DNA from: Nonomuraea sp. PA05
Lineage (GTDB): Bacteria; Actinomycetota; Actinomycetes; Streptosporangiales; Streptosporangiaceae
Direction of reading: 5' to 3'
NCBI RefSeq assembly: GCF_008086045.1
Contig: NZ_VSEY01000042.1
Location: 1-64,000 of the forward strand
Length of the DNA: 64,000 nucleotides
Shown here: positions 36,986 to 59,105 of the stretch, one piece after another
Layout: each line of letters opens with the position of its first letter
Position numbering within the stretch: the stretch's first letter is position 1
Program-made: the position numbers and the translations under genes
Notes under the pieces: generated by a model
Seen by the model: the letters and a program-made list of their open reading frames with translations, nothing else
Told to the model about the DNA's origin: nothing
Databases searched by the model: none

Positions 36986-37008
36986 AAGTGGATAAACTTA
37001 ATTCACTT
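36986..37008. promoter_or_regulatory. Imperfect palindrome between nuclease and integrase genes
   Basis: AAGTGGAT-7 bases-ATTCACTT (arms match at 7 of 8) in the 267-bp AT-richer divergent region. It may be an operator controlling the nuclease or the integrase; no regulator gene exists in the element other than the HTH-nuclease fusion, which could bind here. Confidence 0.35.
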
Positions 37009-37182
37009 TTCGGGCATGCCGATAAAGCGGTCTCGTCATAGCGGGGAGACTGGTGTTTGAGGAGAATCTTTGAGGCAGGGCCAGCCGCTAATAGAACGAG
37101 GCGTCGGCGCTGGCTGTATCCATCACTGACGTCGACGTCAAAGAAGCACTTCGCCCCGTTTCCTTAAAGAAGGTGATGCACG

Positions 37183-38472: not shown

Positions 38473-38529
38473 CCCAAGCATGACCCAGATCAAGAACCAG
38501 GATCTTGCACAGACCAGAAACCCAAGGTC

Positions 38530-38580
38530 GGAGTGGTAGGGCGCCCGGGGCTCGAACCCGGAACCTACGGATTAAAAGTC
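38530..38580. repeat. attR: Right attachment site overlapping tRNA-Lys 3' part
   Basis: 51 bases identical to 33136-33186. They cover the tRNA from its CCA end to the 5' edge of the anticodon loop, so integration restored a complete tRNA on this side. Confidence 0.93.
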
Positions 38581-38609
38581 CGCAGCTCTGCCAATTGAGC
38601 TAACGCCCC
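38534..38609 (-). tRNA. tRNA-Lys (anticodon UUU)
   Basis: On the minus strand: GGGGCGT acceptor, TAGCTCAATTGGCAGAGC D-arm region, GCGGACTTTTAATCCGT anticodon arm with TTT at 38576-38574, GGTTCGAGCC-type T-loop inside CCGGG/CCCGG, and encoded CCA. The first acceptor pair is G-U. It is the integration target of the neighbouring element and stays intact. Confidence 0.95.
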
Positions 38610-43529: not shown

Positions 43530-43602
43530 GCCCCCATCGTCTAGCGGCCTAGGACACCGCCCTTTCAAGGCGGCGGCACGGGTTCGAATCCCGTTGGGGG
43601 CA
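43530..43602 (+). tRNA. tRNA-Glu (anticodon UUC)
   Basis: Acceptor GCCCCCA/TGGGGGC with discriminator A, D-arm ATCGTCTAGCGGCCTAGGAC, anticodon arm CCGCCCTTTCAAGGCGG with TTC, and T-loop GGTTCGAATCC. CCA is not encoded. It begins at the base after the phosphoesterase stop codon. Confidence 0.96.
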
Positions 43603-43699
43603 CCGCGAGCGCCTAGCGCACCCGCAAAACGGCCGGTCGAAGACCACCGAAGAGCTGGTAAGCTAAGCGAGCGCAAACAGAACGAAACGCAAGACGCAA

Positions 43700-43774
43700 G
43701 GTCCTGTAGAGCAGTTTGGAGTGCTCGCCACCCTGTCAAGGTGGAGGTCGCGGGTTCAAGTCCCGTCAGGACCG
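43700..43774 (+). tRNA. tRNA-Asp (anticodon GUC)
   Basis: Acceptor GGTCCTG/CAGGACC, anticodon arm CCACCCTGTCAAGGTGG with GTC, T-loop GGTTCAAGTCC, discriminator G. CCA is not encoded. Confidence 0.96.
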
Positions 43775-43779
43775 CTCTG

Positions 43780-43856
43780 GGTCAGGTAGCTCAGTTGGTA
43801 CGAGCGTCCGCCTGAAAAGCGGAAGGTCGGCAGTTCGACCCTGCCCCTGACCACCA
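43780..43856 (+). tRNA. tRNA-Phe (anticodon GAA)
   Basis: Acceptor GGTCAGG/CCTGACC, D-arm TAGCTCAGTTGGTACGAGC, anticodon arm TCCGCCTGAAAAGCGGA with GAA, T-arm GGCAG-TTCGACC-CTGCC and encoded CCA. It follows tRNA-Asp by five bases, so the two are cotranscribed. Confidence 0.95.
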
Positions 43857-43871
43857 GCATTGAGCAGTAAA

Positions 43872-43905
43872 AACGCCCCATCCACGATCATGTGGACGGG
43901 GCGTT
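43872..43905 (+). terminator. Terminator of the tRNA cluster
   Basis: AACGCCCC-A-TCCAC, loop gatcat, GTGGA-C-GGGGCGTT: a 13-bp stem with one mismatch, preceded by aaa and followed by cgtgtttct. It lies 15 bases after tRNA-Phe. Confidence 0.88.
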
Positions 43906-44114
43906 CGTGTTTCTGCGTGTCTAGCCGAGTGACTACGGTGCCGGGGCGAGGGACTGGCCTTGACATCGCCGGGAACGAGAGCCTGCCGGGCCGCCGGGGT
44001 CTTCGCCTGCATGCTCGGCGACGACGACAGATGGACCCTTGATGGCCATCTGGTCCGGCATGAAGGGACCCTGGGCGGACCGGCACTTACCGCGAGCAGG
44101 CTAGCTGTGATCCC

Positions 44115-44670
44115 TTAGCCCTTCTTGACCGCCTCGCTCACCGAAGCCGGTGAGTGCGCCAGGGGACGCCGTGGCCGGGAAGCACCCAGGATGCCAACAG
44201 CCCGGTGAGCCGGTCCAGGGAGGACAGTACTGTGGCGGGGTCGTCGGTGAAGGGTGCGGGCTGCGGGCCTGTGCGCCCGGTGAGGACGTGCCGCGTGGTC
44301 AGGGCGTCGCCGATGAAACCGCGTCGGCGAGTGGGATGTGCACCGCCACGCTGCCCGGCGAGTGCCCGGGCATGCCCACGATCACCGGCTTGCCTGGCAG
44401 GTCCAGGACGTCGCCGTCCCCCACTCGGTGACTTCGCTGACGTAGCGGGTGCGCAGGCGTTCCAGCGGAGGGAGTAGGCGAAGAAGCCGAGCGTCGGGCC
44501 GAGACGCATTGGGACCCATCGGGGTCTTGGGCTTTTCTCCGTGCGGGTGCGGACCGCGTCGGCGGCGTGCACGAACACCGGAACTCCGTGTTCGCTGTCG
44601 GTGTCGACGAGGTAGCAGGGCACGGTGTCGTTGCCGAAGCGGTGCAGATGGGGCGAGAGTTTCCTAGGTT
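44115..44670 (-). pseudogene. Frameshifted metallo-beta-lactamase-fold hydrolase
   Basis: Opens LSPHLHRFGNDTVPCYLVDT with no start codon, runs to GFFAYSLRWNACAP and then loses frame. A second frame gives RYVSEVTEWG, a third VLDLPGKPVIVGMPGHSPGS and VAVHIPLADAV, then the first resumes FIGDALTTRHVLTGRTGPQP and VLPGHGVPW. A last shift gives SPASVSEAVKKG to TAA 44115. GHSPGS, GDAL and LPGHG are MBL-fold motifs; HxHxDH is missing. Three or more frame breaks and a lost start indicate a pseudogene. It is divergent from the broken TetR gene. Confidence 0.85.
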
Positions 44671-44757
44671 CCCTTACGAGGCTGGGCGAAGGCGTGCGAT
44701 AGCTAAAGATGTTTGCGCTGACGACGAACGTCAATAGCCTTCATCGGGAGGACAACG

Positions 44758-45310
44758 ATGCCCACTCCTGAGAAGAACCTCGCGGGAGAAGATCTTCGCT
44801 GCGGGACGTGATCTGCTCGGGACAGGCGGCCCACAGGACCCGACGATGCAGAGAGTCGCCGAAAAAGTGGGCGTGCGCGCTCCGTCCTTGTACAAGCACG
44901 TCGGCAACCGCGCGGCCCTGATGACCGCCGTCGCCGAGGCCACCGTCCACGACCTGGTGGTCCGGCTGGAGTCGACCGACGGGTCGCTCGAGGCGTTGGT
45001 GCGCGGCTTCCGGCAGTTCGCCGGGACCTGGCCGGAGGAATTCCGGCTGATGCACTCCGCGCAAGCACCTCCCGAGGTTCTCGCCCGCGTGGCCGCTCCG
45101 GTGCTGCGCGCATCGAGGGAACCCGTGGGCGAACAGGAGGCGCTTGACGCCGCCCGCCTGGTGACGGCCTGGGCCAGTGGCTTCCTCGGGATGGAACTCA
45201 TCGGCGCCTTCCGGTTCGGGGGCGATATCGACCGCGCCTTCGAGTACGGCCTGGCCGGCATACGCCGCGCACTGACAACCGGTCACCAGAGCAGTGGAAC
45301 GGCCCCTTGA
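44758..45310 (+). pseudogene. TetR-family regulator with N-terminal frameshift
   Basis: ATG 44758 (gggagga upstream) gives MPTPEKNLAGEDLRCGT and a stop. In the next frame the normal TetR N-terminus continues: REKIFAAGRDLLGTGGPQ, TMQRVAEKVGVRAPSLYKHV (recognition helix) and a WHG-type C-terminal domain (LVTAWASGFLGMELIGAFRF). One extra G near 44782 (ctcGcggg) explains the break. Translation from ATG 44846 would lack helix 1 of the HTH. A single-base event leaves open a sequencing error or recent inactivation. The presumed target is the adjacent MBL gene, itself broken. Confidence 0.75.
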
Positions 45311-45364
45311 CCTGCCGCTGGGCACGGCCACAACGCCGGCGCAAGGTGGCAGCCCACGGCAGCT

Positions 45365-46612
45365 TCAGCCGGGCTTGATGAGGGCCATGAGGGCGTCGAT
45401 CACTTCCGGGGAGTCCCGCAGGACGTCCATGCCCGCGTACTCCTGACTCGTCTGTTCGTGTGACTGCGGAGGCGCCACCCACACGACGCGCGCCATCTCC
45501 GCGAGCTCGCCGTGCGACCGCAGCGCGGCGGGATCGGGGACGGGCGCCGCCGCCGAGTAGAGGACGACCGTGGCCGGGGGAGTGAATTCACCCGACTGCA
45601 GGTCGCGGTGTACGGCGGTGCTGAGCTCGGCGAAGAGCGCGCTGAATCTCGGCCGGAGGTCCGGCCGTCGCAAGCGCCTGGTGGTCAGCCGGCCCGCCGG
45701 TTCCGGGGGGCTGATCGAGAGCCGGGCGGGGTCCGAGAGGATCCGCACCTGGAACGCGGCGTCCATGCGGGCGGCGAGCGCCTGGTCGAGGGCCACCATC
45801 AGCGCGCAGCCCCGCTTCCACAGGGCTTTGTCGTCGAGAACGGGGCGGTAGGCGACGGCCAGGTGGACGAGCATCCGCGGACACGGTCCGGCAGGCAGGT
45901 GAGCCGGTGGCCGGTGACGGGCGCCGCGCGACCAGGGGAGCCATCGCCGGGGTGACGGAGCGGCCTGCTGCGGCCCAAGGAACAGTGGCGGGATCTCCGC
46001 CGGAGAGCGGTTCTTCGCCTCCTGGAGCAGGATGACGGGGTCGTCGGGGGTGCCTAGGCTGAAGCCCGCACTCTTGCGCAACCTGAGCAGGTCGGCTGTG
46101 TCGAGGCCGGGTTCGTTCCCGCTGGAGAACTCCAGGAGCAGCGCGTCTGCCCAGTCGCGCAGTGAGGCGACCATCGTCTGCTGGGTCCAGACACCGGAGC
46201 GCGGAACGGCGATCTCGAAGCCTGTCTCGCCGGTGAGATCCCGGTGGGCGGCCAGGCCGCGGAGCCGGAGGGGCAGCGCCGCGATCGTGGGGTCCGCCTG
46301 GCAGGCGGTCAGGAGCCGGGCGGCGTCGCTCTCGTCGGCGTCGATGACGACGAGGCCGAAGTAGGTGCGGCTCACCCCGCTGATCTGCCGGGTGAGCTCG
46401 TCGGCTATTCGTGTCACCGCGTCGGGGCGGACGGTGTCCTCCTTCGGCCTGCGGCCGAGGTCGGCCGCGCGCAGCTCGATGAAGTCGCTGAGGGTGGGGG
46501 ACATCGAGATCCGGTCGACAGTGTCGTCGATCGGCGCCCCGATGGCTCGGAAGATGTCGGAGTAGCTAGCGACGACGAGCACGCAACCCTGCGACCCGGA
46601 TTCTTCGGACAT
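45365..46612 (-). CDS. Unrecognised protein, last gene of TerY-P-like operon
   Basis: 415 residues from ATG 46612 (GGAG upstream). No signal peptide or membrane segment. An alternating strand-helix pattern (GCVLVVASYSDIFRAI, YFGLVVIDADESDAARLL; later MLVHLAVAYRPVLDD, ATVVLYSAAAPVPD, ARVVWVAPPQSHEQ) suggests two Rossmann-like lobes, possibly a degenerate vWA fold without a DxSxS MIDAS. A Pro/Arg-rich linker separates them at about 235-265. It lies seven bases after the DUF4407 gene on the same strand and is the terminal gene of the operon, so it may be the output or adaptor component. Function unknown. Confidence 0.75.
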   Translation of the reverse strand: MSEESGSQGCVLVVASYSDIFRAIGAPIDDTVDRISMSPTLSDFIELRAADLGRRPKEDTVRPDAVTRIADELTRQISGVSRTYFGLVVIDADESDAARLLTACQADPTIAALPLRLRGLAAHRDLTGETGFEIAVPRSGVWTQQTMVASLRDWADALLLEFSSGNEPGLDTADLLRLRKSAGFSLGTPDDPVILLQEAKNRSPAEIPPLFLGPQQAAPSPRRWLPWSRGARHRPPAHLPAGPCPRMLVHLAVAYRPVLDDKALWKRGCALMVALDQALAARMDAAFQVRILSDPARLSISPPEPAGRLTTRRLRRPDLRPRFSALFAELSTAVHRDLQSGEFTPPATVVLYSAAAPVPDPAALRSHGELAEMARVVWVAPPQSHEQTSQEYAGMDVLRDSPEVIDALMALIKPG

Positions 46613-46619
46613 GTCGCTC

Positions 46620-48059
46620 CTACAGGTCGTTCTCATCGGGCAGGGGGGTGACCGGGCGCAACTGGATGGTCGGCGGGGCGTTGTTGCCGTTGGCCTGCGC
46701 CGTGGAGGCGTTCGAAGGCAGGGCCGTCTGCAGTCGCGTGCTCCAATCGTGCAGCGAGCGGCCGATCACTGTCTGCATCTCCTTGGCCACGTACTTGTTC
46801 ACGTCCAGACCGAGCTGCTTCTCCCGCTGCCTCATGTCCTTCTCGATCTCCGTGCGGACCTGCGCGCGGTCCTGCGCGATGATCCGGTCCACGTCGTGGT
46901 AGGCCTCGCTCTGGATGATCCGCGAGTTGTCGCGGAGCTGGACCTCGGTCTCGTAGGGGGTGATCGGGCCGAGGTTCATGAGGACCTTCACGGTCACGGG
47001 AAGCATCTCGAAGAGCACGAACAGCAGGAACAGCACGAGATGCATGGTGCCCAGCGCGCCGTCCTCCTCGCTGAGCTGGAAGAGCGCCTGGATCTGGGCG
47101 GAGATGTTGTTGTTCGCCGTGTTGATCCGGGTGCCCTCGTCCGCTCTGCTCTTGAGCACGGTGTTGATCTCCGCGAGCTGCTTCTCCCAGGTGACCAGGT
47201 CGGTGCGCGCCTGCTGCTGCGCTTTGACCAGGAGTTCGTTCCGGTTGTTCGTGATCTCGTTCTGGGCGGTGCGCACACTCGCGTTGGCGGTGGCCAGTTT
47301 GCCGGTCACCTTGGCGTAGGCCCGCTGGGCCGCGTCGTACTGGCGCTTCTTGGCCTCGGCCAGCGGGCCGGGGCCCGGCAGGTCGGTGGCCCGGTGACAG
47401 CGCGGGCCCTGGCCGTACAGCTCGCACTGCCATTCCTCGTACTTGCGGTCGCGTGCGGCGCGCTTCTTGTCCTGGTCCTTCGTCAGGTCGTCCACGCGTT
47501 CCCTGGCGGCCTGCAGTCGCGGGGTGGTCACGGTCTGGGGCAGCTTGCCGCCCAGGGTGTCCTTCGCCGTGGCGATCTTCGCTTCCAGGTCCGTCTTGCG
47601 CTGCTTCTCGAACGAGTTTCCCTCCCGCTCCTTCTGCCACGCGGACTCCGCGAGCTGGTTCTTGTGGATCTTCAGCTCGACCTCGGTGTCGAAGATGCGC
47701 AGGACCAGCGGGGTGGAGACCACCATGGAGATGATGAGCGCGATGAACAGGCGGGGGAGGGCCAGCGCCAGCAACCGGCCGCGGGTCCTGCTGGAGCCGA
47801 TGCCGAGCACGAGCATCCGGTCCAGATTGATGATCATGAAGCCCCAGACGATGCCGATGAGCACCGCGACGGCCATGGGCACGTCCAGCCCGTCGTGCAT
47901 GGCGAACGTCATCGAGACCACGGCGATCAACGCGGTCGTCAGCAGCACCAGGGCCATCTGGATGAACCTGGGTCGTTCGGACGGGATCTGCCGGAGCACG
48001 CTCTCGTCGGCTCCGGCGAGTCTTGACAGCAACCTGCTCACGCCGCGGGGTTGGGTCAC
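46620..48059 (-). CDS. DUF4407 multi-helix membrane protein with coiled coil
   Basis: 479 residues from GTG 48059, overlapping the kinase stop (GTGA). Helices at about 33-55, 58-80 and 95-118 (MALVLLTTALIAVVSMTFAM; MAVAVLIGIVWGFMIINLDR; ALPRLFIALIISMVVSTPLV), then a long charged coiled coil (about 125-290), a further helix near 310-330 (LVLFLLFVLFEMLPVTVKVL) and a helical cytoplasmic tail. FMIINLDRMLV is the DUF4407 signature. CELYGQGPRCH gives a Cys pair in the coiled-coil region. The domain is linked to conflict and signalling operons; here it is coupled to a kinase and likely provides the membrane platform or pore. Confidence 0.88.
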   Translation of the reverse strand: MTQPRGVSRLLSRLAGADESVLRQIPSERPRFIQMALVLLTTALIAVVSMTFAMHDGLDVPMAVAVLIGIVWGFMIINLDRMLVLGIGSSRTRGRLLALALPRLFIALIISMVVSTPLVLRIFDTEVELKIHKNQLAESAWQKEREGNSFEKQRKTDLEAKIATAKDTLGGKLPQTVTTPRLQAARERVDDLTKDQDKKRAARDRKYEEWQCELYGQGPRCHRATDLPGPGPLAEAKKRQYDAAQRAYAKVTGKLATANASVRTAQNEITNNRNELLVKAQQQARTDLVTWEKQLAEINTVLKSRADEGTRINTANNNISAQIQALFQLSEEDGALGTMHLVLFLLFVLFEMLPVTVKVLMNLGPITPYETEVQLRDNSRIIQSEAYHDVDRIIAQDRAQVRTEIEKDMRQREKQLGLDVNKYVAKEMQTVIGRSLHDWSTRLQTALPSNASTAQANGNNAPPTIQLRPVTPLPDENDL

Positions 48060-49549
48060 GGCCGGCCCCCTTCACGCTCGATCTCCTTGAGCCTTTTCCT
48101 GATCACCGGTCTGAGTACGGCTGCCATCCCGGTTCCCGCCCGCGCAATGAGATCCGTGACGTCCGCCGAGGCCGTGGCCGCCGAGGCGCCGAAGTCCTGC
48201 GGGAAGACCGCCACGGGGTCGGCAGGGACGAGGCTGCGGACGAAGTCGAAGGGCCGGACGTCCGGTATCTCCACCGTGGAGAGCCCCACCGCGATCCTCG
48301 GCCGGCCTTCCAGCGTGGCCGCCAGGTTCGGCGGCTGGTACGCGTCGAGCTGCGCCATCTCCGGCCGGGGCAGGTTGATGTCGATCCTGACCTCAGGGAC
48401 CTCGTACAGCATCAGCCACCCGAGGTCGGCCAGGACGCCGCCGTACTTGTTGTTCGCCTCGACGAGCACGCGTCCGGAGGCGTTCGGCCTGAAGCTGTAA
48501 CCGCCGGGGTGCGCGGCCGGGTCGACGACGAGCTGCTCGGCGTTCCCGTAGGTGATCACCACCTCCGAGGCGCCGTCGATGTCCCACTCGACCGTCGCGT
48601 CCTGGCCTCGGACCACGTAGGGGACGAGTACCCGCAGGTGGCGTACGTCCGGCACCTTGATCCGGGCCATGACGGCCTGCTTCAGGTAGACGTAGAGCTC
48701 CTTGGCCGTGGGCCGGGCGGCGGGGTCGTCCGAGATCGCCCGTTCGATCAGGGCCCTGCCCGTGTCGTCGATGCTTCCCGCGGGCAGGCGCCCGATCTTG
48801 TCGCTGGTGCTGGCGCCCTTCCCAGGGGTTAGGCAGCGGAGGGTGGCGAGGCCGAGCTTGTAGACGTCGGTCCTGGTGTCCTGGAGCCGCTGCGTGAAGG
48901 GTGGCCTGCACTCCGGCGGCTCCCAGTACGGTGTGTGCGCCTGCCGCCGGTTCGCGTCCGACAGGGGTGCGGCGCCGTCGCAGTCGACAAGCAGGATCTT
49001 GGGCGGGTCGAGGGCGAACGTCGCGTTGCGGAGGCTGATGTCACCGAAGACCCAGCCATGCCGGTGCAGGCGGCCGATGATGTAGACGAGCTGGGCGAGC
49101 ATCATCAGGCGCTCAGTGCGCTCGACCGGAGCGAGTTCGAGCCCGGCCGCCTTGCGCGTCGCGGCGCTGGAGATGAGCCAGACCAGCTCCCGCGGCTTGG
49201 ACGTCGGCAGGCCCGTCTTCTCGTCGTTGATCACGCAGAAGAACTCATCGGGGATCAATCGCATCAGCAGACCCGTGACGGACGAGGTGGAGTCGGCGAT
49301 CACAACGGCCCGCGGCCACACGGAGTAGACGCCGAGGTTGACGCGGTCGGCTTCGGGGAGGGACTCCAGGAAGGCCACCGCCTGCTTCGCCGTCTGCTCC
49401 TGGAGCTGGAACTCCTTGGTGAACTTCTTGTAGGCCAGCGGAGTCGGATCTCCCGGCAGCGTGTAGTCGTTGACCTTGAACACATCGGCGAAGCCGCCGG
49501 ACGAGAGCAGGGTCAACGACCCCAGCTCCGACTCTTTGACAGTCATCAT
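48056..49549 (-). CDS. Ser/Thr protein kinase-like protein with C-terminal beta domain
   Basis: 497 residues from ATG 49549, overlapping the phosphatase stop. Kinase lobe: LLSSGGFADVF (Gly loop), PLAYKKF (Lys), LHRHGWVFGDISLRNATF (catalytic Asp and Asn of an HRD-like loop) and ILLVDCDGA (DFG-like Asp), then YWEPPE (APE-like). All key residues remain, so activity is plausible despite divergence from Hanks kinases. After about residue 300 comes a beta-rich domain (VLVPYVVRGQDATVEWDIDG). No membrane helix. It belongs to the vWA-PP2C-kinase triad typical of TerY-P systems. Confidence 0.9.
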   Translation of the reverse strand: MMTVKESELGSLTLLSSGGFADVFKVNDYTLPGDPTPLAYKKFTKEFQLQEQTAKQAVAFLESLPEADRVNLGVYSVWPRAVVIADSTSSVTGLLMRLIPDEFFCVINDEKTGLPTSKPRELVWLISSAATRKAAGLELAPVERTERLMMLAQLVYIIGRLHRHGWVFGDISLRNATFALDPPKILLVDCDGAAPLSDANRRQAHTPYWEPPECRPPFTQRLQDTRTDVYKLGLATLRCLTPGKGASTSDKIGRLPAGSIDDTGRALIERAISDDPAARPTAKELYVYLKQAVMARIKVPDVRHLRVLVPYVVRGQDATVEWDIDGASEVVITYGNAEQLVVDPAAHPGGYSFRPNASGRVLVEANNKYGGVLADLGWLMLYEVPEVRIDINLPRPEMAQLDAYQPPNLAATLEGRPRIAVGLSTVEIPDVRPFDFVRSLVPADPVAVFPQDFGASAATASADVTDLIARAGTGMAAVLRPVIRKRLKEIEREGGRP

Positions 49550-50442
49550 GGCGAGGCCTCTCCGTCCGGTAAGCCGGGATCCGGCCAGAACGCCACGACG
49601 GTGCGGTCGTCCAGGTGCGACTTGCGGCTGAAGGCGGCCTGGGCCGCGAAGGTGAACGGGTCGGGCGGGGCCGTCCACCAGTCCGCCAGGGCTTCCTGGA
49701 CCTCGCGGGCCCACCGCAGCGGGTTGGCGATTCCGTCGGTCATGAGGAACAGCGCGCCGCCGTTCAGGCGGACCGGCCTTGTCCGGCAGGATCCGTCCCG
49801 GTTGGGCAGCGGGCGCACCTTCGTGGTGTGGAACCCGTCCGGGTCCTCTTCCTCCTGGTCGGTGAGGCACAGCCACCGGCGCTCGGGGGTGAGCCAGAGC
49901 AGGGCGGAGTCGCCGACCCAGGCCAGCTCGCCGATCCACTCGCCGCCGGTCCATCCGATCGACAGGGCCACCATCGTGGTGGCCATGCCGTCCGCCGCCG
50001 GGTCCGCATCTGGGCGTGTGAGGACGAGTTCCGCGTGTGCGCGCAGTTCCTGGTTGGCCTTGTCGACGCAGACCGGCCAGTCGCCGCCGGTCTGGCTCAG
50101 CTCGACGAGCCGCCTGCTGACCATCTCCGCCGCCTCATGGGAGCGCCCCAAGGAGCCGATGCCGTCGCAGACCACGGCGATGGCCCGGGTCGTCTCGCAG
50201 GGTCGCTCGAACTGGCCCAGGGCGTAGGCGTCCTGACGGGCCTCGGCGCGGGAGCGGTGCCGCAGCCCCCGGATCGTGGCCGCCCGGATCAGGACGCCGG
50301 GCAGGGACACGGCGCTCAGCCCGACGTCCGGCAACCCGGGATGCGGCCCGGGAGGGCCGGCGGGCAGTTCCCGCCCCGCCCGCCCGGGATTGCCGATGTC
50401 GAAAGGGGACGCCGCGACGCGCGGATCTCCTCTTGTGTCCAT
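49546..50442 (-). CDS. PP2C-family protein phosphatase
   Basis: 298 residues. RAEARQDAYALG, AIAVVCDGIGSLGRSHEAAE, MATTMVALSIGWTGGEWI, LAWVGDSALLW, LFLMTDGIANP and SHLDDRTVVAFW supply the PP2C metal-binding aspartates in order. The first 55 residues are a Pro/Gly-rich tail. It sits between the vWA gene (4-base gap) and the kinase gene (overlap), the expected position for the phosphatase that opposes the kinase. Cytoplasmic. Confidence 0.92.
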   Translation of the reverse strand: MDTRGDPRVAASPFDIGNPGRAGRELPAGPPGPHPGLPDVGLSAVSLPGVLIRAATIRGLRHRSRAEARQDAYALGQFERPCETTRAIAVVCDGIGSLGRSHEAAEMVSRRLVELSQTGGDWPVCVDKANQELRAHAELVLTRPDADPAADGMATTMVALSIGWTGGEWIGELAWVGDSALLWLTPERRWLCLTDQEEEDPDGFHTTKVRPLPNRDGSCRTRPVRLNGGALFLMTDGIANPLRWAREVQEALADWWTAPPDPFTFAAQAAFSRKSHLDDRTVVAFWPDPGLPDGEASP

Positions 50443-50446
50443 GGAG

Positions 50447-51475
50447 TCAAATCCAGCTGTCGGTGTACTCGGAGTCGCCCTGGGAGATGCCGGAGCCGGG
50501 AGCCGGCGCCGCCTGCACCAGGGCCGGGCGGCCTCCGCTCACGCTCATTCCCGAGGAGATGACCGTGTGCATGATCACGCCGATGATGCCCTGCAACGCG
50601 GCCTCGACGCCCGTGTTGCGGGCGAGGTACCACTTGGCCTTCTCCGGGGGATAGGCGAGCTTCTTCAGCACGCTCTCAGGCGCGGATCGGTAGCCGAACG
50701 GCACGAAGATCGGGTGGGCCTTGTTCCCCTGGCCGGTCCGCTTGTCGTAGGTGAGGGTCTGGTGGAAGGTCTGCTCCCAGTCCGGGTCCGTCGGCGCGCC
50801 GTCACTCAGGAAGAAGGCGCACGGCCGGAAGATCCGGTGTCCCTGGCGCTTCAGCTCCTCCCGGTCGGTGGCGATCGCCTGGGCGAGCGTCTGGAAGGCC
50901 GCGCTGTAGTTGGTGGCTCCCTCGGGTTGCAGGCGCGGAAGCGCGCTCTCACTCAACTGGCCGAGGGGCATCAGCACTCTCGCCGTACTCGAGAACGAGA
51001 TGATCGAGAGCTGTACGACGTCGTCGACGGTCGGTTGGTTGACGATGGCCCGGTGGAGCTGACCGAGGTTGGTGTTGAGCGTTTCCATGTCACCGCTCAT
51101 CGAACCGGAGACATCACAAATGATGTAGAAGGGCATGACTATCTGCCCCTCCTCCACCCGGGTCGATTCCAAGACGCGCTCGTCATCCATTTCGGACGTC
51201 CCTTCTTCGAATGGCGCAGGGGTGTCGAACCACAGGAGCCACTTCTCGCGTATCCATTGATGAACGTCTTCTTGGCCGGCGAAGACATAACCGGTAAGCC
51301 TCTCCATGGCCTCGGCCGTCATGTCTCCGTTCCGGACGGCTGCCTCCAGATCGCGGGGTAGCCAGGAGAGGTAATAGGGGCGTGCCTTGCCATGCAGCAT
51401 GCGGGTTGTTTCGTCCGGGTCCTGATCCATGCCACACCACGCCGTGATGAATTCAGCCAGATCTCGGGTGATCAT
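50447..51475 (-). CDS. TerY-like vWA-domain protein
   Basis: 342 residues from ATG 51475, spaced correctly from agggggaa; ATG 51481 is too close to it. An N-terminal helical domain of about 110 residues (DLAEFITAWCGMDQD ... DMTAEAMERLTGYVFAG) precedes a vWA domain: IVMPFYIICDVSGSMSGDME (MIDAS DxSxS), PEGATNYSAAFQTLAQAI (Thr) and CAFFLSDGAPTDPDWEQT (Asp). TerY-type vWA proteins partner with PP2C and kinase in tellurite/stress-linked or conflict systems. The ion-binding site is complete. The C-terminal 40 residues are flexible. Confidence 0.92.
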   Translation of the reverse strand: MITRDLAEFITAWCGMDQDPDETTRMLHGKARPYYLSWLPRDLEAAVRNGDMTAEAMERLTGYVFAGQEDVHQWIREKWLLWFDTPAPFEEGTSEMDDERVLESTRVEEGQIVMPFYIICDVSGSMSGDMETLNTNLGQLHRAIVNQPTVDDVVQLSIISFSSTARVLMPLGQLSESALPRLQPEGATNYSAAFQTLAQAIATDREELKRQGHRIFRPCAFFLSDGAPTDPDWEQTFHQTLTYDKRTGQGNKAHPIFVPFGYRSAPESVLKKLAYPPEKAKWYLARNTGVEAALQGIIGVIMHTVISSGMSVSGGRPALVQAAPAPGSGISQGDSEYTDSWI

Positions 51476-51487
51476 GTGCATTTCCCC

Positions 51488-52021
51488 CTATCTCTGGGAT
51501 CCGGTCTTGGGAAAGCAGGTGACGAGTCGCCAGTGGCCGTCGTCCCCCAGTCCCCAGCGAGCGAAGCACGTCGCGTCGTCACCGAAGCTCGTGGTACGCG
51601 TCCGCCCGTCGGCGGCCAGGCTTCTGCCGTCTACCCGGCTCCGCCAGTCGGGGCCGAGCGCGTCCCGTAAGGCCGCCTCGCCGAAGATCTTCGGGCGATC
51701 CGTACGGCCGGCGTGGTACAGAGCCTCCTGGCGTTGCTTCATCTCCCTGAGCTCGGCCGAGTTCCAGACCGCGTCGGCGCAGCGCAGCAGGTCCCCGTCG
51801 GAGCGGCAGAACCGCGTCGCGTCGCGTACCTGGCGTTCCTCCTTGATGCCGCGGGCGTTGACCTGCGTGAGCACCCTGCGGTCGAGTTGCTCCAAGCTCA
51901 CGTCCCGGTGTTCGGTGAAGGCGTGACCGTCGCCGCGGCGCTCGTCTTCCCGGATCTGGTCGGCGCGTCGCTGATCCCGCCCGTCGTCGCGGTCCCGCCG
52001 CGTGTCGTTTCTGTCTCGCAT
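51488..52021 (-). CDS. Small charged protein of unknown function
   Basis: 177 residues from ATG 52021; no strong ribosome site, and the start is uncertain. The first 60 residues are almost all Asp/Arg/Glu (RNDTRRDRDDGRDQRRADQ), then a helical middle (SAELREMKQRQEALYHAG) and a compact tail with FGDDATCFARWGLGDDGHW. No family recognised. It lies between the ATPase (10-base gap) and the vWA gene (12-base gap), so it is a fixed part of the operon, perhaps an adaptor for the ATPase. Confidence 0.65.
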   Translation of the reverse strand: MRDRNDTRRDRDDGRDQRRADQIREDERRGDGHAFTEHRDVSLEQLDRRVLTQVNARGIKEERQVRDATRFCRSDGDLLRCADAVWNSAELREMKQRQEALYHAGRTDRPKIFGEAALRDALGPDWRSRVDGRSLAADGRTRTTSFGDDATCFARWGLGDDGHWRLVTCFPKTGSQR

Positions 52022-52031
52022 GGCGAGCGCA

Positions 52032-53534
52032 TCACTGCTGGAGGTCGATGAGGAAGGGGCGGTCGGAGATGTCGCGCGCGTGAACGGTCCCCGCGTAGGG
52101 GCCGAACGGCGGGGCCATGATCTCGCGCACCCCCAGGATGGGCGCCATCTGCGTGTTGACCGTGTGGCTCGTCGAACGCCCGGCGCTCGCGGTCGAGGAG
52201 CCCATCGAGACCGAGGCCGTCTGCACGGGGTGCTCGCCGACCCGCTCCGACATGGCCTCCGCGCTCTTGCGCGAGACGCCGCTGAGGCAGATGAGGGTTC
52301 CGCAGTTGGCGAAGACCACCGAGCGCTGGTTCTCGTCCTTGAACTGGCGGGCGTCCTGGACCGCGATGACCATGGCCACGCCCGCGGCGCGGGCCACGCT
52401 GAGCACGTTCTCGTAGTCGATCCGGTCGGCGATCTGCGCCGCCTCGTCGAGGACCAGGAGCAGCGGAGCGCCGCCAGGACGGGTGAACCTGTCGTAGGCG
52501 CGGTGCAGCAACTGGTTGACGAATAGGCTGGACAACATTTGCGCCATCTGGCCGTCCTGGAGCGGCGCGACGATGGACACGAAGTGCTGGCTGTCGAGGA
52601 TGTCGGCGAGGCGCAGGTCGAGACGGTTTGTGACGGCGACGACGCTGGGTTTGGCCAGGGCGTCCAGTTTGACGGCGACGCCGGTGACACGCTTGGCGTA
52701 GTCGGCGGGGCCGAGGCCCGGCAGGTCGGAGAGCCGGGTGTTGGCCGGGCTCGCCGGATAGCGCTTGAGGGTCTGCTCCAGGCGGTTCTGATCCTTGACG
52801 ATCTTGAGTAGCTGGGCTGCCGTGATGCTGCCACGCCGTGGGGAGACGCTGACGAGTTCGAGCAGCCCGCGCAGGAGCTGGGAGTCCAGGTGGTAGAAGA
52901 ACGGGTCGGTGCCCTGCGGCGCGGCACGTCCGAGGATCGAGGTCACCGCCTGGTCGATGGCCCGGTCGTCGTCGAGCTCGGCCAGCCAGCTCCAGCGGAA
53001 CGAGGTGGCGGGCCGGGTGTAGTCGAGCGTCATGGCGCGCAGGCCGACGCGGGGGGCACCGCTGAGGGCCGCCTTGACGCGTCCGAGGAGGTCGCCCTTC
53101 ACGTCGATGGTGACGACGCTGTACCCGGCGCGGAGGCCCGCGATGATCCACGGGACGATGAGCCCGGTCGTCTTGCCCGAGCCGGCCGGTCCGATCAGCG
53201 CGACATTGTGGTTGATCACCTCGGGCGGCAGGCCGATTGGCTGCCGGGGCCCGCGGGCGGGGTGCACGTAACGGCCGAGCGGGAACGCCGCCCGCTCCAG
53301 CGCGGCGGGTACTGTGCGCAAGGCCAGCACGCCGCGGTAGTCGTGGTACGAGCCGCCGGCGCTAGGTGGGGGCGCGGGGTCGCCGGGCGACAGGACACCG
53401 CGCCGGGCGCCGCGACCGCGATGGTAGGTGCCCATGGCGTTCGCCACTTGAGTGGCGATGGCCTGGGACACTTTGAACGTCACCTTGATGATCCAGGTGG
53501 TGAGCTGCAACCACGCTCTGAACAACTCGGTCAT
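52032..53534 (-). CDS. VirD4/TraG-like (FtsK-HerA superfamily) ATPase
   Basis: 500 residues. NVALIGPAGSGKTTGLIVPW is Walker A (about 115-122), VVTIDVKGDLL a following strand, and PLLLVLDEAAQIADRIDYEN Walker B. VAMVIAVQDARQFKDE and NCGTLICLSGVSRKSAEAMS (arginine-finger region) match the TraG/VirD4 coupling-protein family. The N-terminal 30 residues are hydrophobic-amphipathic, with no clear pair of helices. No relaxase or other type IV secretion gene is nearby. It is first in the operon, so a DNA-pumping or remodelling ATPase serving the kinase/phosphatase system is the inference. Confidence 0.9.
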   Translation of the reverse strand: MTELFRAWLQLTTWIIKVTFKVSQAIATQVANAMGTYHRGRGARRGVLSPGDPAPPPSAGGSYHDYRGVLALRTVPAALERAAFPLGRYVHPARGPRQPIGLPPEVINHNVALIGPAGSGKTTGLIVPWIIAGLRAGYSVVTIDVKGDLLGRVKAALSGAPRVGLRAMTLDYTRPATSFRWSWLAELDDDRAIDQAVTSILGRAAPQGTDPFFYHLDSQLLRGLLELVSVSPRRGSITAAQLLKIVKDQNRLEQTLKRYPASPANTRLSDLPGLGPADYAKRVTGVAVKLDALAKPSVVAVTNRLDLRLADILDSQHFVSIVAPLQDGQMAQMLSSLFVNQLLHRAYDRFTRPGGAPLLLVLDEAAQIADRIDYENVLSVARAAGVAMVIAVQDARQFKDENQRSVVFANCGTLICLSGVSRKSAEAMSERVGEHPVQTASVSMGSSTASAGRSTSHTVNTQMAPILGVREIMAPPFGPYAGTVHARDISDRPFLIDLQQ

Positions 53535-53773
53535 GCGTCACGCTCGTGTTTCCCGTGGGCGGGGATTGCTCCACGCCGCCTTGCCCGCAAGAAATTCGCC
53601 CGACCCCGTGGGCTATTGTCCCAATTTTGCCGGGATATCCAGATCTGCTTGATCGAAATGTCCTGGATCGGTGTGTGCTCCAGGTGAAGGGACTTTCTAT
53701 CAGCCCAATGGCTTGCTTATGGTGCTTAGTGTGACCTTTGTTCGGGGGATATCGATGGGGGGAGGTGTCCGAT
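53535..53773. promoter_or_regulatory. Divergent promoter region of the TerY-P-like operon
   Basis: 239 bases, less GC-rich than the genes beside it, between the ATPase (minus) and the regulator-like gene (plus). A strong ggggggaggtg precedes the plus-strand start. No palindromic operator stands out. Confidence 0.4.
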
Positions 53774-54694
53774 ATGCCCGAGATAGAGGGTACGTGTCGC
53801 TTACTCGTAAAAATGCTCTTGGAAGTGCACGAGTATCGGAAACTGTGGCATCGGGAAGTCGCACGCGTACGCAACTCCACCTTGAGTCAGGCGGGTGTCT
53901 CCCGAGTGATCGGACGCTACTTGGTCGACTCGGGCATCGTCGCGGAACGGGACGAGGCGGGGCTCGACCGGAGACTCCGCCACCGGGTACGGCGGGCCAT
54001 GGCCGGCGACGGGCTGACAGTGGAGACCCTGGAATGGTTCATCGCCGCCTTCGGCATCGTCGAGTCGGACGTCGAGCGGTTGTGGGCGACCTACTTCGGT
54101 GGCAGGAACGAGCCCGAGGTGGGCGTCGCGCACACCGTCATCAGGGAACGTTCCGTCGCCCAGCGGCAGCGGCATCGGACCATGGCGCTGTTCGAGCGTT
54201 ACGAGGCCGATGCCAGCGGGGCGATCTTCCGCCGCTTCACCACCCAGATGATTCTGGCGCTGGAGAACGACGTTCGCAGCTACCTGTTCGATCACGAGGC
54301 GCACGTGGAACGCATCGTCGTCCACGCCGGCGGCTCGCTGGGGCCCCGGCACGTCTACGGGGAAGGCCTGCACGGCCATGAGATTCTGTTGGACCGTTCC
54401 CTCCAGCGCATGCAGCGCACCACGCTGGAGTACCGCACGTACTACCGGACGGTCGCCGGCCCGCCGCTGACGGAGGTACGGCGCTCGGCCCGTGGCCGGA
54501 CCGAGAACGTGTCCTTCTCGGTCCGCTTCGCGTCGGAGCGGCTGCCCGCCCGCGCCTGGTGGTCCATCTGGCCGGACCAGCTCGAAGGGACCCCGCTCGT
54601 GGAGATCCCCGTCCAGGTGAACGCCTCGGCGTGCATCACGCGGGCGTTGCCCTACATCGAGCAGACCGTGGTCGGGTTCCACTGGGAGTGGTGA
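53774..54694 (+). CDS. Regulator-like protein with C-terminal beta domain
   Basis: 306 residues from ATG 53774 (ggaggtgtccgat upstream). The N-terminal 100 residues are helical (LSQAGVSRVIGRYLVDSG; RRAMAGDGLTVETLEWFIAA) and resemble divergent XRE-like helix bundles. The C-terminal part (DVRSYLFDHEAHVERIVVHA, GEGLHGHEILLDRSLQRMQR, NVSFSVRFASERLPARAWWS ... VVGFHWEW) is a beta domain seen in many actinobacterial proteins of unknown function. It is divergent from the seven-gene operon with a shared 239-bp region, so control of that operon is the natural inference. DNA binding is not proven. Confidence 0.7.
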   Translation: MPEIEGTCRLLVKMLLEVHEYRKLWHREVARVRNSTLSQAGVSRVIGRYLVDSGIVAERDEAGLDRRLRHRVRRAMAGDGLTVETLEWFIAAFGIVESDVERLWATYFGGRNEPEVGVAHTVIRERSVAQRQRHRTMALFERYEADASGAIFRRFTTQMILALENDVRSYLFDHEAHVERIVVHAGGSLGPRHVYGEGLHGHEILLDRSLQRMQRTTLEYRTYYRTVAGPPLTEVRRSARGRTENVSFSVRFASERLPARAWWSIWPDQLEGTPLVEIPVQVNASACITRALPYIEQTVVGFHWEW

Positions 54695-54818
54695 GGAGGT
54701 CTGAGCGGGTGCCCGTTCATGAGTAGAGGCGTGGATCATGAGTGGGCTTGAGCGGGAGAGGTCGGTAGTGTCGCCTTCGACCGGTCGCGGGGGCTGACAG
54801 GAAACTGAGGAGGCCGAC

Positions 54819-55589: not shown

Positions 55590-55692
55590 AAGTCCATCCA
55601 CCGTTCGGTGGGTTCGCGGGTCAGCATGATGCGCGCCCGATCATGGCCGCCAGGTCGATTCGCCTCGGACGCGGCCGCAGGAAGCTTGATCC

Positions 55693-56583
55693 ATGGCAGT
55701 CATCGAGGTCACGGACCTGCGCAAGGCGTACGCGGGCCAGACGGTCCTGGACGGGGTGTCGTTCTCCGTGGAGGAGGGCGAGATCTTCGGCATCCTCGGC
55801 CCGAACGGCACCGGCAAGACCACCATGGTGGAGTGCGTGGAGGGGCTGCGGCGGCCCGACAGCGGGACGATCAGGGTGCTCGGGCTCGACCCCGTCAAGG
55901 ACGCGCGTGACGTGCACGAGCGGATCGGGGTGCAGCTCCAGCAGACCCAGTTGCCGGAGAACCTGAAGGTGTGGGAGGCGCTCGACCTGTACGCCTCGTT
56001 CTACGCCCGGCCGCGTGACTGGCGGGAGCTGCTGGAGGAGTGGGGTCTGGCGGACAAGCGGAACGCCCGGTTCGGAAAGTTGTCCGGCGGCCAGAAGCAG
56101 CGGCTGTTCATCGCGCTGGCGCTGGTGGGCAACCCGGAGGTGGCGTTCCTGGACGAGCTGACCACCGGCCTGGACCCGCAGGCCCGCCGCACGACGTGGG
56201 AGCTGATCAAGCGAATCAGGGCGAGCGGGGTGACGGTGGTGCTGGTCAGTCACTTCATGGACGAGGTGGAGGAGCTGTGCGACCGCGTGGCGGTGCTCAG
56301 CGGCGGCAGGGTCGTGGCGGTGGACACGCCGTCGGGGCTGGCCGGCGGCGAGCAGCGGATGCGGTTCACGCTGAAGGGGGAGCACCTCCTCGACCTGGCG
56401 GACGTGCCGGGGGTGACCGGGGTGTCCAGGGAGGGGAACCGGGTGACCGTCACCGGCAGGGGTGACTTCGCGACGGCGGTCACGGCGCATCTGGCGCGAC
56501 AGCAGGTGCTGGTCAGTGACCTGCGCATCGACAAGCGGACGCTGGAGGACGCGTTCACCGCTCTGACCGGCCCGTCCTTCTGA
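55693..56583 (+). CDS. ABC transporter ATP-binding protein
   Basis: 296 residues. FGILGPNGTGKTTMVECVEG is Walker A, VQLQQTQLPENLKVWEALDL the Q-loop region, GKLSGGQKQRLFIALALVGN the signature, VAFLDELTTGLDPQARR Walker B/D-loop and VVLVSHFMDEVEELCDRVAV the H-loop. GTGKTT replaces GAGKTT. The C-terminal 75 residues match the accessory domain of DrrA/CcmA-like exporters. It works with the permease 15 bases downstream; the NarL-type kinase/regulator pair follows. Confidence 0.95.
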   Translation: MAVIEVTDLRKAYAGQTVLDGVSFSVEEGEIFGILGPNGTGKTTMVECVEGLRRPDSGTIRVLGLDPVKDARDVHERIGVQLQQTQLPENLKVWEALDLYASFYARPRDWRELLEEWGLADKRNARFGKLSGGQKQRLFIALALVGNPEVAFLDELTTGLDPQARRTTWELIKRIRASGVTVVLVSHFMDEVEELCDRVAVLSGGRVVAVDTPSGLAGGEQRMRFTLKGEHLLDLADVPGVTGVSREGNRVTVTGRGDFATAVTAHLARQQVLVSDLRIDKRTLEDAFTALTGPSF

Positions 56584-56597
56584 GAGAGAGAACGATC

Positions 56598-57293
56598 ATG
56601 ATGAAGCTCGCCGTCGTCGAGACCAAGCTGCTCACCCGCGACCCCGGGACGCTGTTCTCGTTGCTCATCCCGCTGTTCATCCTGGTGGTGTTCGGCAGCT
56701 CGATCGAGCCGGGCGACACCGTGCTGCTGCCGATGGCGCTGGCCATCGCCGTGGGGCTGGTGGGCCTGTACCTGCTCCCGACCACCCTGGCCGGCTATCG
56801 CGAGCGGGGGATCCTGCGCAGGCTGTCCATCACGCCGGTGCGTCCCGGCAGCCTGCTGGTGGTGCAGTTGCTGCTGCAACTCGTTCTGGTGGTGGTCGCC
56901 TGCGGGCTGCTGGTGACCGTCGCCGGCACGGTGCTGGGCGCGCGGCTGCCGGGCCTGGTGTTGTCCGGTGTGCTGGCGTTCCTGCTCGGTACGGCGAGCA
57001 TGTTCGCGATCGGCTCGCTGGTGGCGGCCCTGGCGCCGAACGGCAGGGCCGCCAACGGGATCGGCGTGCTGCTGTACTTCCCGATGGCCTATCTGGCCGG
57101 GCTCATGCAGCCGGTCGACCAGATGCCGGATATCGTGGCGACTGTCGGGAAATTTACCCCTCTGGGGGCTTTTAGGGAGAGCCTTCAGGACGTCTGGGCG
57201 GGGAGTGCTCCCAGCCTCGTGGCCCTGGGCGTGATGGCCGTGTACACCCTGGTCATCGGCCTCGCGGCAACCAAGCTCTTCCGCTGGGAGTGA
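56598..57293 (+). CDS. ABC-2 type permease
   Basis: 231 residues with six predicted helices. KLAVVETKLLTRDPGTLFSL is the N-terminal amphipathic segment, YRERGILRRLSITPVRPGSL the conserved ABC-2 coupling motif, and GVLLYFPMAYLAGLMQPVDQMPD (split over the helix end) the usual exit loop; LGAFRESLQDVW precedes the last helix. Partner of the upstream ATPase. The substrate may be an antimicrobial or lipid. It starts after tgagagagagaacg with a weak ribosome site and is likely coupled to the ATPase gene. Confidence 0.92.
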   Translation: MMKLAVVETKLLTRDPGTLFSLLIPLFILVVFGSSIEPGDTVLLPMALAIAVGLVGLYLLPTTLAGYRERGILRRLSITPVRPGSLLVVQLLLQLVLVVVACGLLVTVAGTVLGARLPGLVLSGVLAFLLGTASMFAIGSLVAALAPNGRAANGIGVLLYFPMAYLAGLMQPVDQMPDIVATVGKFTPLGAFRESLQDVWAGSAPSLVALGVMAVYTLVIGLAATKLFRWE

Positions 57294-57296
57294 AGA

Positions 57297-58445
57297 ATGG
57301 CCGGTCGCCTCGACCGCTGGGAACGGCTGCTGGAGCGTCAGCTCGCCGCCGCACCGTACGTCCTGCTGGCGATCTCCACGATCCTCAGCCTGCTCACCGG
57401 CGGCCGGCCGTGGATCACGGCCGGCCTGGCCGCGCTCGCCGCCGCGTGGCTGTGGCTGGCGCCCCGGGGCGCGGTCTACGTGGCGGGCCTGGTGGTGCTG
57501 ATCGGGGCACTCTGTACGCAGGGAGCGTGGTTCGCCAGCTTCTTCGGCTTCACCGGATACCTCCACTCCTGGCAGTACCTGAAGGGTAAGTGGCGGTTCG
57601 CCGGAGTGAGCGCCACGGCCGCGATCAGCGTCGTGGCCTACGGCGGCGGCCTGCCGGAGCCCACCCCGGTCGCGATCCTCACCTACCTGTTCTTCACCGC
57701 CGCCATCGTGGCCGGAGTCGGCCTGTTCAGCTTCGTCGGCGAGGTCACGGCCGAGCGGAGCGACGAGCGCAAACACATGGTGACGCGCCTGGAGCAGACC
57801 ATGCGGGAGAACGCGGGACTTCAGGCCCAGCTCCTGGTCCAGGCCCGCGAGGCAGGTGTGCTCGACGAACGGCAACGCATGGCCGCCGAGATCCACGACA
57901 CCCTCGCCCAGGGGCTGACCGGCATCATCACCCAGCTCCAGGCGGCCAAGCAGGGCCAGGACTGGCACCACGTGGACGTCGCGGTACGGCTGGCGCGCGA
58001 GAGCCTGGCCGAGGCCCGGCGTTCCGTGAACGCGGTCGGCCCCGGCCAGCTCGACACCGCGCCCCTGCCGGAGGCGCTCGAAGAGATCGTCGGCCAGTGG
58101 CGCGAGTTGCACGGGACGCGGGCCGAGTTCACCGTCACCGGTACGGTTCGGCCCATGCACCCAGAGGTCGAAGAGACGCTGCTGCGCACCGCGCAGGAAG
58201 CCCTGGCCAACGCCGCCAAGCACGCGAACGCCTCCAGGGTGGGGCTGACCCTGTCGTACATGGAGGATCTGGTGACTCTGGACGTACGCGACGACGGCAT
58301 CGGCTTCGACCCCAGGCTGACGGCGTTCGGCCTGACCGCGATGCGCAAGCGGGTGGACCGGCTGGCGGGCACCCTGGAGATCGAGTCCGAGGCCGGCGCG
58401 GGCACCGCGATCTCGGCCAGCCTCCCGGCGGTGACCCGTGGTTGA
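57297..58445 (+). CDS. NarL-type sensor histidine kinase
   Basis: 382 residues. Four to five helices in the first 150 residues form the sensor. RQRMAAEIHDTLAQGLTGII carries the phospho-accepting histidine of the HisKA_3 type, and TAQEALANAAKHANASRVGL plus VRDDGIGFDPRLTAFGLTAM are the N and G1 boxes of the ATPase domain. It starts three bases after the permease and overlaps the response regulator by eight, giving an ABC-HK-RR operon in which the kinase likely senses the transported compound or the transporter itself. Confidence 0.94.
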   Translation: MAGRLDRWERLLERQLAAAPYVLLAISTILSLLTGGRPWITAGLAALAAAWLWLAPRGAVYVAGLVVLIGALCTQGAWFASFFGFTGYLHSWQYLKGKWRFAGVSATAAISVVAYGGGLPEPTPVAILTYLFFTAAIVAGVGLFSFVGEVTAERSDERKHMVTRLEQTMRENAGLQAQLLVQAREAGVLDERQRMAAEIHDTLAQGLTGIITQLQAAKQGQDWHHVDVAVRLARESLAEARRSVNAVGPGQLDTAPLPEALEEIVGQWRELHGTRAEFTVTGTVRPMHPEVEETLLRTAQEALANAAKHANASRVGLTLSYMEDLVTLDVRDDGIGFDPRLTAFGLTAMRKRVDRLAGTLEIESEAGAGTAISASLPAVTRG

Positions 58446-59082: not shown

Positions 59083-59105
59083 CGGTGAGCAGGCGGCCGT
59101 GAAGC

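What the first reader, a model, noticed from the sequence alone, without database searches (positions are those of the whole stretch)
45365..53534. Seven-gene operon joining a TerY-type vWA-PP2C-kinase triad to a VirD4/TraG-like ATPase and a DUF4407 membrane protein
Seen: one strand, seven genes, gaps of 12 bases or less or 4-nt overlaps, intact MIDAS, PP2C and kinase residues, intact Walker A/B. Known: vWA-PP2C-kinase (TerY-P) triads occur in stress and biological-conflict operons. Inference: a phospho-switch controls a membrane-associated DNA-translocating or remodelling ATPase. No relaxase, mating-pair or secretion genes accompany the ATPase, so this is not a conjugation locus. This is the best candidate for an undescribed defence or stress system in the window.
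Basis: partly seen in the sequence, partly recalled or inferred. Interest (0 to 1): 0.86.

Follow-up and report, generated by a model that had tools for sequence, protein, structure and literature searches.

The report
TerY-like switch with toxin-immunity cassette
A seven-gene bacterial operon, sitting on a variable stretch of chromosome, couples a protein-phosphorylation switch and a membrane protein to what looks like a toxin whose neutralising partner is fused onto the switch, probably as a defence or conflict system.

Summary
The seven genes are real, on one strand and tightly packed. They form two modules. g3-g7 (TerY-like vWA, PP2C, kinase, four-TM DUF4407 protein, orphan g7) is a core kept in the same order in two other genomes, both lacking g1 and g2; 3 of 250 family genomes, window included, have the kinase orthologue. 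g1 (VirD4-like ATPase), g2 and the first 97 residues of g3 are a 5' cassette. The two g2 relatives found (G513, G445) are each followed directly by a separate small gene matching g3's extra N-terminus. That order, an aligned H-x10-R plus [T/S]-x-[Y/F]-P as in the CdiA-CT RNase A active site and one weak RNAse_A_bac match (E 0.03) suggest an RNase-like toxin whose partner is fused to the vWA protein; g2 itself matches no family. The operon lies on a roughly 10.9-kb segment not found at this site in 7 of 7 genus relatives examined, beside a tRNA cluster. I read it as a new variant of TerY-P-type conflict systems. Function is inferred.

The parts
52032..53534 (-). g1: VirD4/TraG-like ATPase, 500 aa
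   Evidence: Pfam T4SS-DNA_transf 78.2 bits, TraG-D_C 59.8; NCBIfam conju_CD1115 113.5 bits, below its 250-bit cut-off; PADLOC mad8 46.7 bits; Walker A 115, Walker B 359
51488..52021 (-). g2: 177-aa putative RNase A-like (CdiA-CT-type) toxin
   Evidence: No family match itself; relatives in G513 and G445; one relative matches RNAse_A_bac at E 0.03, below cut-off; H38-x10-R49 and TCFP at 168
51191..51481 (-). g3 N-terminal domain, residues 1-97: putative immunity/antitoxin-like partner of g2, fused to the vWA
   Evidence: Homologous to separate small genes directly after the g2 relatives in L121 (E 4e-18) and L123 (E 5e-7); absent from the two core orthologues
50447..51190 (-). g3 vWA core (TerY-like), MIDAS intact; whole gene 50447-51481
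   Evidence: VWA_2 39.5 bits; orthologues 52% and 60% identical
49546..50442 (-). g4: PP2C-family phosphatase, 298 aa
   Evidence: PP2C_2 59 bits; orthologues 49% and 59%
48056..49549 (-). g5: Ser/Thr kinase with about 200-aa C-terminal extension lacking cysteines, 497 aa
46620..48059 (-). g6: DUF4407 protein, 4 hydrophobic segments, about 200-residue loop with the protein's only two cysteines
   Evidence: DUF4407 215.8 bits; segments 30-56, 58-88, 94-125, 332-364 by hydropathy; two cysteines nine apart in 3 of 3 orthologues
45365..46636 (-). g7: orphan protein, 423 aa
   Evidence: No family match; orthologues 30-43%; low-confidence model, mean pLDDT 45.4
43951..54806 (.). Segment without match at this site in 7 genus relatives; carries the operon, a TetR-type ORF (44846-45310) and an unassigned ORF (53765-54694). 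The left edge lies between about 43860 and 43950, depending on the relative
43530..43856 (+). tRNA-Glu, tRNA-Asp, tRNA-Phe cluster at the left edge of the segment
   Evidence: same cluster in the relative L112

Best explanation
A membrane-linked TerY-P-type conflict system that has acquired a toxin cassette. Proposed working: the four-TM DUF4407 protein senses an envelope event (for example phage adsorption or DNA entry) through its cysteine-bearing loop; kinase and PP2C set the phosphorylation state of the vWA scaffold and/or g7; the extra N-terminal domain of the vWA protein holds the RNase-like g2 inactive; a change of state frees g2, which cleaves RNA and halts the cell or the phage. The VirD4-like ATPase would remodel or move g2 or incoming DNA. 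Shown: gene order, conservation of the five-gene core in two other genomes, co-occurrence of g2 with a g3N homologue, fusion of g3N to the vWA, variable site, intact motifs. Inferred: toxicity, RNase activity, inhibition by g3N, phospho-control, trigger, role of the ATPase, antiphage function.
For: Core g3-g7 in the same order in G093 and G241. TerY-P triads protect against phages in print (PMC10889362 passages; PMC7699616 passage), and ATPase genes have been inserted next to TerY-like vWA genes in other conflict operons (PMC11090510 section 10). g2 and g3N homologues occur together in 2 of 2 non-window g2 loci and in none of the other 48 of 50 held loci over 5 kb (a few of the 50 overlap). 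G513's pair follows an Hsp70 gene; G445's lies with a HerA-type ATPase, TNT-domain, vWA and Hsp70 genes, like the Hsp70-type conflict systems of PMC7159879 section 29. His and Arg 11 apart, as His175/Arg186 of CdiA-CT-Ykris, aligned in 3 of 3 homologues. PADLOC: kinase matches MkoA at 31.7 bits, g1 matches mad8 at 46.7 bits. A distant kinase-DUF4407 cluster on a Rhodococcus opacus plasmid sits beside DUF262, DUF3883 and nuclease genes. Variable site.
Against: No experiment. g2 itself returned no family at E<=10, nor did the G445 copy; PF18431 found nothing in the own genome, and it rings below cut-off in 5 of 14 control genomes, so weak matches to it are cheap. A 3-row g2 profile found no RNase A structure in PDB. 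In the window the last active-site-like residue is Phe and in G445 Thr is Ser; I widened the end pattern after seeing the sequences, and only G513 fits strict T-x-Y. The core orthologues lack the cassette, so the core must work without g2. PADLOC gives no match for vWA, PP2C, g2 or g7. The R. opacus cluster shows no g3 (vWA) or PP2C match. The flanks scanned beside the operon are mostly ordinary metabolic, transport and regulatory genes.
Confidence: 0.45

Rival explanations
1. A TerY-P-like, non-suicidal antiphage system in which the triad plus DUF4407 and g7 act directly (phospho-signalling at the membrane) and the VirD4-like ATPase works on incoming DNA; the g2/g3N pair is a passenger toxin-antitoxin unit that happened to fuse to the vWA gene.
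For: The core without g1/g2 exists in two genomes; most TerY-P cells survive infection in print, with some cell death (PMC10889362 passages).
Against: The in-frame fusion and 6-10 nt spacing put g2 and g3N in the same operon as the triad; g1 has no match in the two core loci.
Confidence: 0.25
2. An interbacterial competition device: the VirD4-like coupling-type ATPase exports g2 as a toxin, and g3N is its immunity domain.
For: VirD4-family ATPases couple substrates to secretion channels (established knowledge); g2 resembles CDI-type toxin domains.
Against: No secretion channel gene among the neighbouring ORFs scanned; g1 has no match at E<=1e-3 in either other g2 locus, although G445 has a HerA/DUF87 ATPase.
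Confidence: 0.12
3. A cell-envelope or developmental phospho-signalling system of a complex actinomycete, not conflict-related.
For: vWA-PP2C-kinase loci are common here: 16 of 20 fetched vWA regions carry all three at E<=1e-3 (20 regions chosen from the 40 places); DUF4407 genes occur in 79 of 200 genomes of the order, usually without the triad (14 of 15 fetched loci).
Against: Patchiness of this core (3 of 250), variable site, toxin-like cassette.
Confidence: 0.13
4. Remnant of a conjugative element that kept its coupling protein.
For: g1 is a VirD4/TraG relative.
Against: No relaxase, VirB4 or channel gene among scanned neighbours; intact ORFs; no integrase among the ORFs scanned in the segment (44138-44623 was not scanned) and no flanking repeat found.
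Confidence: 0.05

Closest known systems
TerY-P triad (vWA, PP2C, Ser/Thr kinase), antiphage (Gao 2020 as reported in PMC7699616; PMC10889362)
   Same: Three components, adjacent, catalytic and MIDAS residues intact
   Different: Kinase tail has no cysteines, so no zinc ribbon; operon adds DUF4407, g7, VirD4-like ATPase, g2 and a vWA fusion
Type III-A CoCoNuT operons with 5' ATPase extensions (PMC11090510)
   Same: TerY-P genes with an FtsK/HerA-superfamily (EssC-like or VirB4-like) ATPase inserted beside a TerY-like vWA gene
   Different: No McrB/McrC-like, HEPN or helicase match in the operon
GAP1-N2 GTPase conflict systems (PMC7159879)
   Same: Actinobacterial theme with kinase, PP2C, vWA near the membrane; the G445 g2 locus has Hsp70 and, by my reading of the sequence only, FnIII-like and Zn-ribbon GTPase-like genes
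   Different: No GTPase match in the window operon
CDI toxin-immunity pair of the RNase A superfamily (CdiA-CT/CdiI of Yersinia kristensenii, PMC9086364)
   Same: Toxin-then-partner gene order (order of CDI genes recalled); His and Arg 11 apart; Thr-x-aromatic near the C-terminus
   Different: No CdiA/CdiB delivery seen; no significant profile match for g2; partner domain matches no family and is fused to vWA
MADS (methylation-associated defence; recalled, not read here)
   Same: Kinase (mad6, 14.8 bits) and ATPase (mad8, 46.7 bits) resemble MADS components
   Different: No methyltransferase or other MADS component matched

Membership tests
TerY-P triad | Adjacent TerY-like vWA with MIDAS, PP2C and Ser/Thr kinase | tested here: met
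   g3 also matches plasmid vWA proteins, two of the 30 listed rows annotated as having a TerY-C domain
TerY-P triad | Kinase C-terminus fused to a zinc ribbon | tested here: not met
   No Cys in residues 296-497
TerY-P triad | Kinase C-terminus fused to an OB-fold (stand-alone antiphage variant) | tested here: inconclusive
   No Pfam match to the tail; structure job for the kinase never accepted
CoCoNuT | McrB-like GTPase and McrC/nuclease components | tested here: not met
   None among operon and the neighbours scanned; Mrr_cat at 35281-36948 is in a separate island
GAP1-N2 conflict system | GAP1-N2-type GTPase | tested here: not met
   No GTPase match in the operon
MADS | Methyltransferase and other MAD proteins | tested here: not met
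   Only mad6 and mad8 matches among the operon proteins
Conjugation locus | Relaxase and mating-pair formation genes beside the coupling protein | tested here: not met
   None among 22 neighbouring ORFs scanned
RNase A-like CdiA-CT toxin (PF18431) | Profile match above cut-off | tested here: not met
   g2 no match; one of three homologues 15.6 bits against a cut-off of 27
RNase A-like CdiA-CT toxin (PF18431) | Active site His, Arg (+11), Thr-x-Tyr | tested here: inconclusive
   H/R aligned in 3 of 3; Thr-x-Tyr strictly in 1 of 3
Toxin-immunity pair | Small partner gene directly downstream of the toxin gene | tested here: met
   2 of 2 relatives; fused to vWA in the window
Toxin-immunity pair | Toxicity and neutralisation | not testable with these tools
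   needs experiment

The most novel reading that the evidence does not exclude
A phosphorylation-gated toxin release: the TerY-like vWA protein is itself the antitoxin carrier, so kinase and phosphatase decide, on a signal from a membrane DUF4407 sensor, when an RNase A-like toxin is let go, with a VirD4-type ATPase as the ejecting motor. This would give TerY-P-type switches a direct effector.
Probability: 0.25. Interest if true: 0.82.

Novelty: new variant of a known kind. Interest (0 to 1): 0.6.

Why it matters
How a TerY-P phospho-switch is connected to an effector is, to my knowledge (recalled, and not settled in the passages read here), open. A vWA protein fused to the partner of a toxin-like protein is a physical link between switch and possible effector that can be tested with two genes. 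The five-gene core also ties DUF4407, a membrane protein family of unknown function, to a conflict-type module.

Tried and rejected
g7 as a degenerate vWA: profile comparisons gave probabilities below 1% and the model was too poor to search (mean pLDDT 45.4), so I dropped it; no fold search was made. The R. opacus 198-aa protein as degenerate vWA: likewise unsupported. PF18431 in the whole own genome: nothing at E<=10. g2 profiles against PDB: none or dynein hits at E 0.22 or worse, taken as chance. Kinase, g7 and DUF4407 profiles against PDB: generic kinases, chance, none. Viral contigs for g1, kinase and g2: no relative. Phages for g1: 6 unannotated records at 21-25%. Plasmids for g2: one hit at E 0.6 for the window copy, no match for the G513 copy. 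DUF4407 as a general partner of the triad: rejected, 14 of 15 fetched DUF4407 loci have no vWA, PP2C or kinase match (one of the 14, L093, has a 42-residue g1 match at E 6e-4). tRNA attachment repeats: none found. Literature: no paper held 4 of the 5 terms; DUF4407 gave 3 papers (listing only). The library holds open-licence papers only, so this is no proof of absence. Searches returned irrelevant papers; MADS is cited from recall and from PADLOC/NCBIfam names.

Full report
Observation. The seven genes exist as described. From 53534 downwards: g1 VirD4/TraG-like ATPase; g2, 177 aa; g3 vWA; g4 PP2C; g5 kinase; g6 DUF4407; g7. Pfam supports g1, g3, g4 and g6 above cut-off, the kinase only weakly; alignment with orthologues restores confidence in the kinase. 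Catalytic, MIDAS and Walker residues are intact. The genome is an unnamed 13.1-Mb assembly of 131 contigs with 6.25% estimated contamination; the window's flanks match genus relatives at 76-95%, so the contig belongs to it.

Two modules. In 150 genomes of the family, 29 (window's own included) have a vWA match at E<=1e-10, at 40 places. I fetched 20 regions around such places, one in the window's own genome; 16 of 20 hold vWA, PP2C and kinase matches together at E<=1e-3, 2 vWA and PP2C, 1 vWA and kinase, 1 vWA only. The triad itself is therefore common. Besides the window only G093 matched strongly (E 3.5e-86 against 4.5e-36 for the next), and there vWA, PP2C, kinase, DUF4407 and g7 follow in the same order. 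A DUF4407 search in 200 genomes of the order hit 79, but only the window and G241 scored above 480 bits (next 231). G241 carries the same five genes in the same order; the other 14 of 15 DUF4407 loci fetched carry no triad match. A kinase profile found the orthologue in 3 of 250 family genomes, the same three. In 246 class genomes it found, besides the window, two matches limited to the kinase domain, whose loci hold other vWA genes but no DUF4407 match. Neither G093 nor G241 carries g1, g2 or the first 97 residues of g3.

The 5' cassette. g1 has no relative at E<=1e-15 in the 53 other genus genomes nor at E<=1e-20 in the 295 other phylum genomes sampled, where 5 candidates a genome were scored. 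On plasmids it matches 261 records; the 25 listed are coupling proteins of cyanobacteria, Firmicutes and alphaproteobacteria at 22.6-26.2% identity. g2 has, besides the window, one relative in a sample of 298 family genomes (G513) and one in 394 class genomes (G445). In G513 the relative is followed 10 nt later by a separate 89-aa gene matching g3 residues 2-88. In G445 a 100-aa gene matching g3 residues 4-85 overlaps the relative's stop by 4 nt. Across 50 held loci over 5 kb, g2 and g3N occur only in these two, both times together. So g3N is a partner of g2 that in the window is fused to the vWA.

What g2 is. I guessed an RNase A-like CDI toxin from the sequence before testing. Against: g2 has no Pfam match, the G445 copy has none, PF18431 finds nothing in the own genome and rings below cut-off in 5 of 14 control genomes, and no PDB relative was found. 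For: the G513 copy's only Pfam match is RNAse_A_bac, E 0.03, 15.6 bits against a cut-off of 27, covering residues 51-72, the His/Arg region. The review PMC9086364 (passages read) gives the CdiA-CT-Ykris active site as His175, Thr276, Tyr278 and Arg186. In the alignment of the three homologues His38 and Arg49 are invariant, 11 apart, and each ends with [T/S]-x-[Y/F]-P; shuffled copies reach this pattern in 23, 153 and 120 of 20,000. The end pattern was widened after seeing the data (strict T-x-Y holds in 1 of 3), and the three proteins are not independent. The G445 neighbourhood, with TNT-domain, HerA-type ATPase, vWA and Hsp70 genes, fits a toxin slot in the Hsp70-type conflict systems of PMC7159879 (section 29 read); the FnIII-like and Zn-ribbon GTPase-like genes there are my reading of the sequences, the former without Pfam match, the latter not scanned.

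The membrane part. g6 has four hydrophobic segments in each of three orthologues, with a loop of about 200 residues between the third and fourth holding the only two cysteines, nine apart. An outer, disulfide-bearing loop is inference from topology. A distant kinase (29% over 35-370) with a DUF4407 gene and a 198-aa gene lies on an R. opacus plasmid beside DUF262, GIY-YIG nuclease, DUF3883 and restriction endonuclease genes, a defence-type setting; no PP2C or g3 match is present there.

The variable site. All 54 genus genomes have the left-flank gene; I fetched stretches of about 20 kb from 7. None of the 7 matches window 43951-54806 over 100 nt or more. In L112 and L111 the two edges lie 0.4 and 1.8 kb apart (422 bp replace 10.9 kb in L112). 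In L110, L113, L114 and L115 the left flank ends at 43865-43950 and homology resumes further on, at 55592-59118; in L116 the right flank was not in the stretch. The left edge is next to a tRNA-Glu-Asp-Phe cluster. No integrase was seen among the ORFs scanned and no flanking repeat.

Literature. TerY-P as antiphage: PMC7699616 (passage) and PMC10889362 (passages: active against Autographiviridae, most cells survive). ATPase insertions next to TerY-like vWA genes: PMC11090510 (passages and section 10). PMC4978471 (passages): TerY-P island in Helicobacter with FtsK and WXG genes. PMC7159879: passages and section 29.

Verdict. A new variant of TerY-P-type conflict systems: a conserved five-gene membrane-linked core, and here a cassette that adds a VirD4-like ATPase and a toxin-like protein whose partner is fused to the vWA. 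Function, toxicity and mechanism are inferred.

Noticed in passing
33458-38609: Small island at tRNA-Lys (38534-38609): phage integrase 37183-38472, Mrr_cat restriction endonuclease 35281-36948, and a protein with TnsA-like and sigma70 region 4 domains 33458-35125; GC drops to 0.63-0.65 between 32001 and 38000.
   Followed up: partly
L121:229-13791: G513 contig combines a vWA-PP2C pair, a second vWA-like gene (Pfam below cut-off), a 923-aa protein, Hsp70 and the g2/g3N pair.
   Followed up: partly
L123:4443-17977: G445 locus with HerA/DUF87 ATPase, TNT-domain protein on the other strand, g2/g3N pair, vWA, Hsp70 and two further genes that read as FnIII-like and Zn-ribbon GTPase-like.
   Followed up: partly
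L102:7926-11206: R. opacus plasmid DUF4407 - 198 aa - kinase cluster between DUF262 and nuclease genes; the annotated DUF4407 start may be internal, as the match to g6 begins only at residue 108.
   Followed up: no
L051 (G000:C83:48500-68400): The window's own genome holds a second, divergent vWA-PP2C-kinase locus.
   Followed up: no
20025-23960: 1311-aa protein with ALF short repeats (7 stretches).
   Followed up: no
53765-54694: Unassigned 309-aa ORF on the plus strand inside the variable segment, divergent from the operon.
   Followed up: no
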